From Nymphaea colorata (Eukaryota; Streptophyta; Magnoliopsida; Nymphaeales; Nymphaeaceae), in contig NC_045138.2 of the NCBI RefSeq assembly GCF_008831285.2, positions 33,451,934 to 33,515,933 of the forward strand: 64,000 nt of DNA, written 5' to 3'. Of the stretch, positions 1,153 through 7,104 are shown piece after piece. Position 1 is the stretch's first letter, and each line of letters starts with the position of its first letter. Both the position numbers and the translations under genes were made by a program. Below the pieces are notes generated by a model that was given only the letters and a program-made list of their open reading frames with translations, made no database searches and was not told where the DNA came from.

Positions 1153-4100
1153 TTATCGAGCTTCCAACACTGTTACTGTCAGTTCACTGCCTGTGTATGT
1201 CTTAGGATCGCTTTCTATGGAAGATGAACTCGCTTCCAAAAGTTTGCCTCGGTAAGAATAGGCTGGCTGTTTCGGTTTAGGCAACACTGCCAAATCACTG
1301 CTCAGCATAAGAACAATGGAGGACATAGTGGGGCGGTCTGCTGCATCTGTTTGAACACAGAGAAGACCCACGTTGATGCACTTCATCAACTGATCTATGT
1401 GGCACAAATTGTCTAGTATTGGATCAAGCAATTCCACCCCCCTTTCTTCATTCCACAGTTTCCATGCCTGCACAGAATCAATTCACCAGCAGCTCAAAGG
1501 TCATAACCATAAATTATTCCTACAACATCAATTAAACAGGATGCACATCGTGTGGACAGACAGCACCAACTTTCCTGGAATGATGGTGAAAACTGATGGC
1601 TCGCAGACCCAATTCTATCATTCCTATTCTCATCCATTCATGCTCTACTGATAAATAATTCTACCAAGTGACTTTTTCTACTAAGTCTGTACTTGAATCA
1701 TCCGCTTTCAGAAGAAAAGGACAAAATTATGACAATTCATATGACGAAATCCACTACATGCAAATTTAGATCACGACTATGGGGTCTAATTTGATAAAAA
1801 CAACCAGAATAACAGCAGATATGGCCAACGGGAGGGGGAGCAAGGTTACCAACATGTCCAAGAAGATTAAGGGAGTACTCCACATTATGGAAGGTTGTCA
1901 TCTTCTGCCCACTCACTATCTCCAGAACTATGACCCCAAAGCTGAAGACATCAGATTTGGTGGAGTAGCGACCTTCCATGGCATATTCTGGAGGCATGTA
2001 CCCACTGCATTTGAATTATAGACATGCATCCTTCAAATAAGAAAACTTTTAACAGGTATTGCATTATCATAGCACAACAAATGAACATTTAGCTTATGCA
2101 TACACTTTTATGCAAGTTCTGCTATTTGATTTTAGTAGTCAAAGTAGTTTTTCACTTAATGCTTGCAGTTTGCGACTAAATCAGATCATCATGATAAGAT
2201 GGCTAGAGCTTGATATTCCTGAAACAGTTACAACGTCTCTGACCTACTTGGATGTGTCACACAAGTGCAGGTGCAACGTGTAGATGTATATATACGTATA
2301 TGTACACAGTCATAGACAATAAAACTAAAGATTAAAAGGTTATCAATCTATCACTAATTCTATGAAAAAGAAAGCAAATTTTGTCAGTTGGACATGTTGA
2401 CTCAGGTGTGGCAGCCTCTTTGAAGAGTATTTTGTCAGTTGGACATGTTGACTCAGGTGTGGCAGCCTCTTTGAAGAGTCTGTGTTACTTGGACAGACAA
2501 AATGACATATGCTTTAACATGATCTTATAGTTGACACAACCTAATCATTTTAACACGGGCTCATAGTTGATAATCCTAAGTCGTTTACTTGTTAGAAAAC
2601 ATCTGTTGCTAGGGATGCCTTTAACGAATAGATGTGTTTCCAGAGCAATCAAAAAATTATTTAGTTATCTGACATGAATTTAATATACACCTGCTCAGAA
2701 TGGTCAGAAGTGCTCTGCAACACCTCATCAGATAAATTGACTTGAGCAATTCACGCAAAATGACATCATCATTTTTTGTACATGGGGTGGATGTCGTTAC
2801 TAAGTTACTACAATGCCAAAGCAAAAGAGACTTTTTGAATGAATATGGGAGGGTTACCATGAGAAATTGTAGATTACGGCTACAGCAACAGACCTCAGAC
2901 AGCATGTCGCTTTTGGCCAGTATTAAGGACATTTTGAATCAGTGATGACTCTCCCTTGAAAATTAAAGTTAAATAAATGAATATTGCCTGTCCTAATTTA
3001 TTAATAGTTACATGCAACTACCCTTTTGCAGAGTTAAATACAGAAGATAAATTCCTTTATGGCCATTGTTTTTTGCGGATACAGACAAATCCATACCCAT
3101 ATGCGCACAAACACATACATTACATATTGGCATGAGAGGGAGAGGGAGAGCTCTTACAAGGTCCCCACTACTCTGTGGGTATTCACTTGAGTGTGGTCAC
3201 CAGAAAATGCTCTGGCTAGGCCAAAGTCTGAAATTTTTGGGTTCAAAGCACCATCAAGCAGAATGTTGCCGGTTTTGAGGTCCCTGTGTATCACTTTGAG
3301 GCGTGATTCTTGGTGGAGATATTGAAGTCCCCGAGCAATCCCAACCATGATCTCAAAGCGTTTCTCCCAAACCAACTGCGTGCTCAGAGTTGGATCTGCA
3401 AACAATTTTTAATTGAAAAGTTAAACAGGACACATACAATTCTGCAAAAGATGGTAAAATTCTCCTGGCTAGGGGTGTAGGACTACGAAACTGTCAAGTT
3501 AAAGAGTTTGTACCATGCACAAACTGGTGGACTCTCTCTCTCTCAACTGCAGATGTGTTTAATTATTATTTATTTAGGATCCACGTGCCATATAATTCAG
3601 AAAATACTTCTTCGTATCATTGCATGCTGTAAGCTGCTACAACTACATTTGCCAAACTTACAACTAGTTGCCATCAGAAAGATAGAAAGGACAAATTGTA
3701 GAGTGATAGACAAACCAAAAAGAAATTTGTCCAAGCTTTTGTTGGGCATGTATTCATAGATCAATATCCTCTCTTCTCTTTCAACGCAGCACCCTAAAAG
3801 CTGAACCAGATTTTTATGCTGAAGCTTGGCTATTAACTTGACTTCATTCATAAATTCCTCATAGCCTTGTTTTGAGCCCTGAGATAGCCTCTTCACTGCC
3901 ACATCCTGCTCCCCTGGTAGTGTACCCTTCAGAACATATAAACTTCCATATCAGTTAAGAATTTATGTTCATGCATGAATCAAACAAAAAAATCAGAGAC
4001 TGGATGCCTTGGGTGACAACTAACTTGGCTGACTTAAGTTGGTATAGCAGTAGCACCTTTGGCATAATCAAGAGTCGGTGTGATGACAACTTATTAGTCC

Positions 4101-7100: not shown

Positions 7101-7104
7101 CCAT
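1153..7104 (-). CDS. LysM receptor-like kinase, CEBiP-type ectodomain fused to S-domain/CRK-type kinase (copy 1)
   Basis: Seven exons on the minus strand: 7104-6375, 5179-5066, 4634-4468, 3926-3716, 3395-3158, 2004-1854 and 1467-1153. All introns are GT-AG, phases match at every junction, and the joined frame is open for 641 aa plus stop. Residues 1-36 are a signal peptide. Three LysM modules lie at about 50-103, 118-166 and 180-228, with C41/C47 and two CxC motifs (104-106, 168-170) as in CEBiP/LYM2 proteins, plus several NxS/T sites. Exon 2 encodes a transmembrane helix (about 251-273) followed by a basic WRWRRK stop-transfer. Kinase residues visible: glycine loop G328-x-G330-x-x-G333, K349, E365, HRD D446, DFG D464, APE-equivalent PPE; it is an RD kinase and all key residues are present. 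The start at 7104 is preferred over an in-frame ATG at 7131 because only this MVKL start is conserved in copy 2. Predicted role, by family: plasma-membrane perception of chitin or peptidoglycan-like glycans with direct kinase output. Ligand is unknown. The LysM exon's own frame stops 33 codons past the donor without a GPI signal. Confidence 0.9.
2378..2479. repeat. Two 51-bp tandem copies in intron 5 of LysM-RLK copy 1
   Basis: A 51-bp stretch is repeated head to tail without visible differences. The matching place in copy 2 (about 11330-11360) holds a single version, so the duplication followed the gene duplication. Confidence 0.85.

What the first reader, a model, noticed from the sequence alone, without database searches (positions are those of the whole stretch)
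1153..7104. CEBiP-like LysM ectodomain fused in frame to an S-domain/CRK-type RD kinase
Seen: exon 1 encodes a signal peptide and three LysM modules with two CxC motifs and ends in a phase-1 GTAAGG donor. The next exon (transmembrane) accepts phase 1, and five further exons give a complete kinase, 641 aa without a stop. Known: CEBiP/LYM2 proteins are GPI-anchored and lack a kinase, working through CERK1; plant LysM-RLKs carry a different kinase subfamily. Inference: a single-chain glycan receptor built from a CEBiP-type sensor and a DLSV-type kinase, which I do not recognise as a described class.
Basis: partly seen in the sequence, partly recalled or inferred. Interest (0 to 1): 0.92.

Follow-up and report, generated by a model that had tools for sequence, protein, structure and literature searches.

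The report
Natural CEBiP–S-domain kinase fusion receptor
A plant genome, probably a water lily's, carries three side-by-side genes in which a fungal-sugar sensor that normally has no signalling part of its own has been joined to a kinase borrowed from a different receptor family, a natural counterpart of chimeras that have been engineered in rice.

Summary
Seven exons at 7104–1153 (minus strand) join in frame into a 641-aa protein: signal peptide, three LysM modules, TM segment, intact RD kinase. It is not a chance join. Two tandem genes, C (window 16849–10003) and A (just upstream), have the same seven exons, phases and open frames; A and B are old (dS about 0.6; introns largely unalignable), yet the coding sequence is constrained (omega 0.35). 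The ectodomain is CEBiP/LYM2-type (fold Z 27.9 to OsCEBiP). The TM exon and kinase match S-domain (G-type lectin) RLKs, which crowd this cluster, better than CRKs or LYKs. CEBiP genes and S-domain RLKs here both have a phase-1 intron at the ectodomain boundary, so replacement of exon 1 explains the fusion. Function is inferred: a one-chain glycan receptor needing no separate LYK kinase. Caution: Ile122, reported essential for chitin binding in OsCEBiP, is Thr in B and C but Ile in A, so B's ligand may have changed. No transcript evidence; one plant genome searched. I found no description of this architecture in the open-access papers searched. New variant of a known kind.

The parts
6375..7104 (-). 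Gene B exon 1: signal peptide, three LysM modules, CRC and CSC motifs, short stalk with N-glycosylation sequons; phase-1 donor GTAAGG
6787..6969 (-). LysM1 (residues 46-106)
   Evidence: Pfam LysM1_NFP_LYK
6607..6750 (-). LysM2 (residues 119-166); OsCEBiP Ile122 and Trp129 replaced by Thr and Arg
6427..6555 (-). LysM3 (residues 184-226)
   Evidence: Pfam LysM
5066..5179 (-). Gene B exon 2: TM segment, homologous to the TM exon of S-domain RLKs
4468..4634 (-). Gene B exon 3: juxtamembrane region and Gly-rich loop
3716..3926 (-). Gene B exon 4: VAVK lysine
3158..3395 (-). Gene B exon 5: HRDLK (RD), DFG
1854..2004 (-). Gene B exon 6: activation segment end (PPEY)
1153..1467 (-). Gene B exon 7: C-lobe end and DUF3403-type C-terminal tail, stop
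16138..16849 (-). Tandem copy C, exon 1 (LysM)
14760..14873 (-). Copy C exon 2 (TM)
13769..13935 (-). Copy C exon 3
12841..13051 (-). Copy C exon 4
12281..12518 (-). Copy C exon 5
10775..10925 (-). Copy C exon 6
10003..10317 (-). Copy C exon 7; copy C protein is 635 aa

Best explanation
This is a real receptor kinase gene, one of three tandem paralogues, made by replacing exon 1 of an S-domain (G-type lectin) receptor kinase with the LysM exon of a CEBiP/LYM2-type gene through compatible phase-1 introns. The product is a type I membrane protein. The three-LysM ectodomain binds a GlcNAc-type glycan (inferred). The ligand brings two chains together, as in OsCEBiP sandwich dimers (inferred). The attached RD kinase then autophosphorylates and signals through S-domain-RLK partners rather than through a separate LYK/CERK1 kinase (inferred). 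Copy A keeps the reported chitin-contact Ile; B (the finding) and C have changed the central groove and probably read a different or modified glycan, or use LysM3. Shown: sequence, splicing compatibility, three maintained copies, the two parental families, ectodomain fold (predicted model). Inferred: expression, ligand, dimerisation, signalling.
For: In-frame 7-exon model of 641 aa. Two more intact copies, 628 and 635 aa, with the same splice phases. A-B dS 0.615, omega 0.35 overall; exon 1 omega 0.48 (95% 0.34-0.69), exon 2 0.25 (38 codons), exons 3-7 0.27 (0.20-0.38), while introns are largely unalignable. Ectodomain: OsCEBiP 5jcd E 1.8e-43; fold Z 27.9/27.4 to 5jce/5jcd, next best 21.8. Kinase: over exons 3-7, 65.2-78.1% identity to 8 of 8 S-domain-RLK loci examined, 58.8-61.6% to one CRK and three unlabelled DLSV loci; in exon 5, 40-46% to 5 of 5 LYK/LYR loci. 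TM exon: scores above 500 of 500 shuffles in each of 8 fusion/S-domain comparisons; tblastn finds it at 5 of 8 S-domain loci for fusB and not at the CRK L016. First exons of relatives carry B_lectin + S_locus_glycop + PAN_2 in 7 of 7 scanned. A phase-1 donor straight after LysM3 is clear in 3 of 5 LYP-type genes, both CEBiPs among them; a phase-1 ectodomain/TM intron is seen in S-domain RLKs L011 and L012. Of 74.9 kb searched, S-domain matches lie only at the far upstream edge (a neighbouring gene) and at window 38855-39272, none within or between the three fusion genes (edges); no CEBiP exon 2 there either (best E 0.38). Engineered precedents: a CEBiP-Pi-d2 chimera with enhanced chitin responses in rice (title only, in the reference list of PMC10381495) and CEBiP::XA21 (passage in PMC4379099).
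Against: No transcript data. One genome only. In the B-C pair exon 1 omega is 0.84 (95% 0.51-1.47) and the 38-codon TM exon 0.92 (no interval computed), so recent constraint on the sensor is not shown there. OsCEBiP Ile122 is Thr in B and C, and Trp129 is Arg/Ser. AU tests do not reject the fusion kinases grouped with LYK/LYR (p 0.318) or with CRK-like kinases (p 0.243), nor the ectodomain with LYK (0.091) or LYM1/3 (0.090); these use few rows and unrooted splits, but they limit the tree evidence. In exon 5 alone the CRK L016 (72.6%) lies within the S-domain range. The TM exon was not found at 3 of 8 S-domain loci for fusB (L009, L010, L014).
Confidence: 0.75

Rival explanations
1. Two neighbouring transcription units: a short LysM-only protein ending in intron 1, and a kinase unit with its own start or another ectodomain exon.
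For: No transcript was available here; read into intron 1, exon 1 stays open for 33 more residues.
Against: Those 33 residues end in a charged stretch and do not look like a GPI signal (judged by eye, no predictor run). No S-domain match lies within or between the three genes and no CEBiP exon 2 (the query finds all 5 LYP loci, two of them its own source genes). Donor and acceptor stay in phase in three copies although A and B introns have diverged.
Confidence: 0.06
2. A decaying or never-functional chimera (pseudogene in progress).
For: The ectodomain of B and C evolves fast (omega 0.84) and has lost Ile122/Trp129; pseudogene debris of S-domain RLKs is present in the window.
Against: Three intact frames; omega of the kinase exons 0.17 (B-C) and 0.27 (A-B); A-B exon 1 omega 0.48 with an upper bound of 0.69; kinase motifs kept in all three and the six cysteines shared by all eight aligned LYP-type ectodomains kept.
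Confidence: 0.08
3. A variant LysM-RLK (LYK) that merely diverged in its kinase.
For: Same gross order LysM-TM-kinase; AU test p 0.318 does not reject grouping with LYK/LYR kinases.
Against: Exon-5 identity 70-78% to S-domain RLKs against 40-46% to LYK/LYR; DUF3403 tail; S-domain-RLK TM exon; ectodomain nearest CEBiP, not LYK.
Confidence: 0.03
4. The fusion works mainly as a decoy or co-receptor: it still needs a LYK partner, and its own kinase modulates rather than starts the signal.
For: Known LYM/LYR proteins are modelled as heteromers with a LYK (PMC6207691 passages); LYK and LYR loci exist in this genome.
Against: Kinase exons under strong constraint with an RD catalytic loop.
Confidence: 0.25

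Closest known systems
CEBiP / LYM2 (LYMII) LysM receptor-like proteins
   Same: Ectodomain: three LysMs, CxC spacers, six shared cysteines, best sequence and fold match to OsCEBiP; LysMs in one uninterrupted exon followed by a phase-1 intron.
   Different: No CEBiP exon 2; carries a TM and a kinase; B and C lack Ile122 and Trp129.
S-domain (G-type lectin) receptor kinases
   Same: TM exon, kinase and genomic cluster; DUF3403 tail above cut-off in B and C, just below it in A.
   Different: B_lectin/S_locus/PAN ectodomain replaced by LysMs.
LysM receptor kinases (LYK/CERK1, LYR)
   Same: LysM ectodomain, TM, kinase in one chain.
   Different: Kinase of another family; ectodomain of the LYM2 branch; 7 exons (LYKs have 9-12 introns, LYRs 0-1 after the LysM part; PMC6207691 passage).
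Engineered CEBiP-Pi-d2 and CEBiP::XA21 chimeras in rice
   Same: CEBiP ectodomain on a foreign receptor kinase; Pi-d2 is a B-lectin-type kinase (recalled).
   Different: Man-made; the kinases there are non-RD (recalled), RD here.
CRKs with exchanged kinase in grasses (Vaattovaara 2019)
   Same: Natural ectodomain/kinase swap in receptor kinases, told by exon structure and attributed to tandem duplication (PMC6368629 section 9).
   Different: DUF26 ectodomain and L-lectin-type kinase instead of LysM and S-domain-RLK kinase.

Membership tests
CEBiP/LYM2 receptor-like proteins | Three LysMs with CxC spacers most similar to OsCEBiP | tested here: met
CEBiP/LYM2 receptor-like proteins | Cys-rich C-terminal exon and GPI anchor, no kinase | tested here: not met
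   CEBiP exon 2 not found in 74.9 kb around the genes (best E 0.38), found at all 5 LYP loci; kinase present
CEBiP/LYM2 receptor-like proteins | Ile122 reported essential for chitin binding | tested here: not met
   Thr in B (the finding) and C; Ile in A (role of Ile122 from PMC13402948 passages)
S-domain receptor kinases | S-domain-RLK kinase with DUF3403 tail | tested here: met
   B: DUF3403 32.7 bits, cut-off 28.9 (A is 27.4, just below); 65-78% identity over exons 3-7
S-domain receptor kinases | B_lectin / S_locus_glycop / PAN ectodomain | tested here: not met
   absent from the protein and from the DNA within and between the three genes
LysM receptor kinases (LYK/LYR) | LysM ectodomain + TM + kinase in one chain | tested here: met
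   (gene model; no transcript)
LysM receptor kinases (LYK/LYR) | Kinase belongs to the LYK/LYR kinase subfamily | tested here: not met
   exon 5: 40-46% to 5 of 5 LYK/LYR loci against 70-78% to 8 of 8 S-domain-RLK loci; tree; the AU test alone is inconclusive
CRK (DUF26) receptor kinases | DUF26 ectodomain | tested here: not met
   no DUF26 in the protein; it is found in the CRK control L016
CRK (DUF26) receptor kinases | CRK-type kinase | tested here: inconclusive
   58.8-61.6% to L016 and three unlabelled DLSV loci against 65.2-78.1% to S-domain loci, but the AU test does not reject a CRK grouping (p 0.243)
Chitin receptor (function) | Binds chitooligosaccharides and signals | not testable with these tools
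   needs binding and expression assays

The most novel reading that the evidence does not exclude
A lineage-specific class of one-chain glycan receptors that bypasses the CEBiP/LYM-CERK1 partnership by routing LysM perception into the S-domain-RLK signalling branch, with tandem copies (B, C) already evolving a new glycan specificity in the central LysM groove while copy A keeps the ancestral chitin site.
Probability: 0.4. Interest if true: 0.78.

Novelty: new variant of a known kind. Interest (0 to 1): 0.63.

Why it matters
Rice CEBiP lacks a kinase and works with CERK1. Here evolution seems to have fused the sensor to a kinase of another family, in three tandem copies, as plant engineers later did. 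It gives a natural test of whether ectodomain and kinase modules of plant immune receptors are interchangeable, whether LysM perception can bypass CERK1, and how ligand specificity shifts after a fusion (A against B/C). It also warns that LysM-plus-kinase domain counts can hide a different kinase lineage.

Tried and rejected
Rejected: CRK origin as the preferred reading (no DUF26; kinase and TM exon closer to S-domain RLKs; not excluded by the AU test); LYK origin; a leftover S-domain first exon (none within or between the fusion genes); alternative CEBiP 3' exons (none). Led nowhere: intron 1 and upstream DNA against CEBiP and S-domain-RLK loci, to locate the recombination point: intron 1 gave no match, and upstream of C matched only kinase-exon debris. 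AU tests were inconclusive and are reported as such. The first kinase search of the genome ranked intron-free kinases and was replaced by an exon-5 search, which scored 150 of 1196 candidates. Of 17 matches to the LysM exon I fetched the places of 15 (three fusions, the fragment in copy A, two CEBiPs, three LYMs, six at LYK/LYR loci); C1:9604694 and C7:23159101 were not followed. The TM exon could not be tested at L029, L030, L031 and L032, whose fetched DNA stops at or near the kinase. Other plants could not be searched. The papers behind the ids PMC3903257 (Hayafune 2014) and the DOI of Kouzai 2013 are not held. In the trees the CRK/SD labels are mine: L016 (CRK) and seven S-domain loci (L008, L009, L011-L015) were confirmed by Pfam, L010 only by eye; L029, L030, L032 have unknown ectodomains; L025-L028 were labelled by eye as outgroups. 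The AU run left out three rows (LYR_L020, LRR_L026, CrRLK_L027).

Full report
WHAT IS THERE. The window lies at C1:33451934-33515933 of a 408-Mb genome in 783 contigs; kinase matches fall on contigs C1 to C14. This fits the published Nymphaea colorata assembly (409 Mb, 14 pseudo-chromosomes; passages of PMC7015852); the species is my inference. On the minus strand, 7104-1153 gives seven exons that join in frame to 641 residues. Exon 1 ends ACTG|GTAAGG in phase 1, and the TM exon opens after GCAG in phase 1. The protein has a signal peptide (by eye and as a predicted N-terminal helix), three LysM modules with CRC and CSC spacers, a hydrophobic TM stretch, and a kinase with GQGGFG, VAVK, HRDLK, DFG and PPEY. 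Pfam also finds the DUF3403 C-terminal tail (32.7 bits, cut-off 28.9).

NOT A CHANCE JOIN. Two further genes of the same build lie in tandem: C at window 16849-10003 (635 aa) and A upstream of the window at C1:33443747-33450432 (628 aa). All three have the same seven exons and phases and no internal stop. Between A and B, dS is 0.615 and the introns are largely unalignable (blastn finds only stretches of 21-40 bases, in 3 of 6 introns), while omega is 0.35 overall, 0.48 in the LysM exon (bootstrap 0.34-0.69), 0.25 in the TM exon and 0.27 in exons 3-7. Between B and C (dS 0.156) the kinase exons have omega 0.17 (0.10-0.29), but the LysM exon 0.84 (0.51-1.47) and the TM exon 0.92, so recent constraint on the sensor is not shown for that pair.

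WHERE THE SENSOR CAME FROM. By sequence the nearest solved proteins are OsCEBiP (5jcd, E 1.8e-43; 5jce, 3.3e-43); LysM receptor kinases follow at 3e-7 or weaker. The predicted ectodomain (pLDDT 79.9, pTM 0.71, 8 sequences) matches 5jce and 5jcd with Z 27.9 and 27.4 (rmsd 1.8 and 1.6, 197 and 192 aligned), the next at 21.8. In this genome the best matches outside the fusions are two CEBiP-type genes on C9 (47% and 45%; the second with one stop in the matched stretch, which runs past its exon), then three LYM1/3-type genes (34-38%). Trees place the three fusions with the CEBiPs (fusion clade 97/99, fusion+CEBiP 87/91; 82/89 and 86/90 with fewer rows). AU tests do not reject grouping with LYK (0.091) or LYM1/3 (0.090), so the tree alone is not decisive.

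WHERE THE KINASE CAME FROM. Of the ten best exon-5 matches outside the three fusions, nine lie in one cluster, C1:33.39-33.61 Mb. Seven of seven first exons scanned from S-domain relatives carry B_lectin, S_locus_glycop and PAN_2; the CRK control carries DUF26. Over exons 3-7 the fusB kinase is 65.2-78.1% identical to eight of eight S-domain-RLK loci (three to five exons found) and 58.8-61.6% to one CRK and three unlabelled DLSV loci. In exon 5 alone the S-domain loci give 70-78%, the CRK 72.6%, the three unlabelled ones 62-66%, five of five LYK/LYR loci 40-46% and four other kinases 47-53%. The fusB TM exon finds the TM exon of five of eight S-domain loci (E 5e-9 to 0.005) and nothing at the CRK L016; in eight of eight fusion/S-domain comparisons its score beats all 500 shuffles. 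In the tree the fusions sit inside the S-domain group, next to L010/L015 (82/80; fusion clade 95/91), apart from LYK/LYR (98/99 for the S-domain + CRK + fusion clade). AU tests on a reduced set do not reject holding the fusions with LYK/LYR (0.318) or CRK-like kinases (0.243); with unrooted splits I think these mostly ask where outgroups attach, but I report them as limits. dS from fusB to the eight S-domain loci is 0.93 to 2.36, against 0.45 to fusA, so one fusion event before the A/B split and after the split from those paralogues is the simplest reading.

HOW THE FUSION AROSE. In both C9 CEBiPs the frame runs to VPLR and meets a phase-1 GTGAG donor; L007 is similar (GTAAGG), L005 and L006 less clear. 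S-domain RLKs join their single ectodomain exon to the TM exon in phase 1 (clear for L011 and L012). Swapping exon 1 between two phase-1 introns therefore keeps the frame. S-domain matches in the 74.9-kb region lie only at its upstream edge (a neighbouring gene) and at window 38855-39272, not within or between the fusion genes; no CEBiP second exon is found (best E 0.38), though the query finds all five LYP loci. The recombination point could not be traced. Precedent: CRKs usually have seven exons (one ectodomain, one TM, five kinase) and show ectodomain/kinase exchanges, including a grass-specific kinase switch suggestive of chimeric gene formation after tandem duplication (PMC6368629 section 9).

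WHAT IT PROBABLY DOES. Inference: ligand binding by the LysMs brings chains together and the attached RD kinase signals without a separate LYK. The usual model is a heteromer of a LYM or LYR with a LYK (PMC6207691 passages). Man-made analogues exist: CEBiP::XA21 (PMC4379099 passage) and CEBiP-Pi-d2, whose title reports enhanced chitin responses and blast resistance (seen only in the reference list of PMC10381495). That Pi-d2 is a B-lectin kinase, and non-RD, is recalled. So nature appears to have built a similar chimera.

A RESULT AGAINST THE SIMPLE READING. Ile122 of mature OsCEBiP (150 with signal peptide) is described as essential for chitin binding (PMC13402948 passages). The PDB chain is numbered from residue 29, so chain position 122 is that Ile. 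It is Thr in B and C, Ile in A and both C9 CEBiPs; Trp129 is Arg in B, Ser in C, Trp in A and the CEBiPs; Ile116 is Ser in B and C, Val in A. With the fast B-C ectodomain, B (the finding) may have lost or changed CEBiP-type chitin binding, whereas A may keep it. The LysM3 modules of A, C and B rank 1, 2 and 5 of 25 LysM matches in the genome (53.5, 52.4, 46.4 bits), so LysM3 may contribute.

IN PRINT. A catalogue of plant LysM architectures lists LYK, LYP, LysMe, LysMn and F-box types (PMC2728734 passages); a lectin-domain survey lists LysM/kinase as one architecture (PMC5485960 passages). Seven searches aimed at the architecture, three aimed at chimeras and at Ile122, and passages of the papers opened gave no natural CEBiP-type ectodomain on an S-domain-RLK kinase. 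Most listed papers were not opened and the library is open access only. The water lily paper reports expanded protein kinases but has no LysM mention in its main text.

VERDICT. A maintained fusion gene family, as far as sequence can show, with both parental families and a plausible mechanism identified; function inferred; new variant of a known kind.

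Noticed in passing
window 25288-31368: Satellite-like array of nested 63/130-bp units, about 29 copies in its longest row, some units about 95% alike.
   Followed up: no
window 36062-39272 (+): Scrambled S-domain-RLK debris: kinase exon pieces (36062-37303) lie upstream of an S-domain piece (38855-39272) on the same strand.
   Followed up: partly
window 19198-19910, 46604-47326, 63391-63817: Dispersed repeat, two to three copies by segment, each place carrying a kinase exon-4 fragment split between two frames.
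   Followed up: partly
window 18494-17968 (-): Broken kinase exon 5/6 pieces just upstream of copy C, perhaps a lost further tandem unit.
   Followed up: partly
L001, C1:33447860-33448000 (+): Intron 1 of copy A holds partial decayed copies of its own LysM exon, one piece matching on the opposite strand.
   Followed up: partly
window 2378-2479: Perfect 51-bp tandem duplication in intron 5 of gene B.
   Followed up: no
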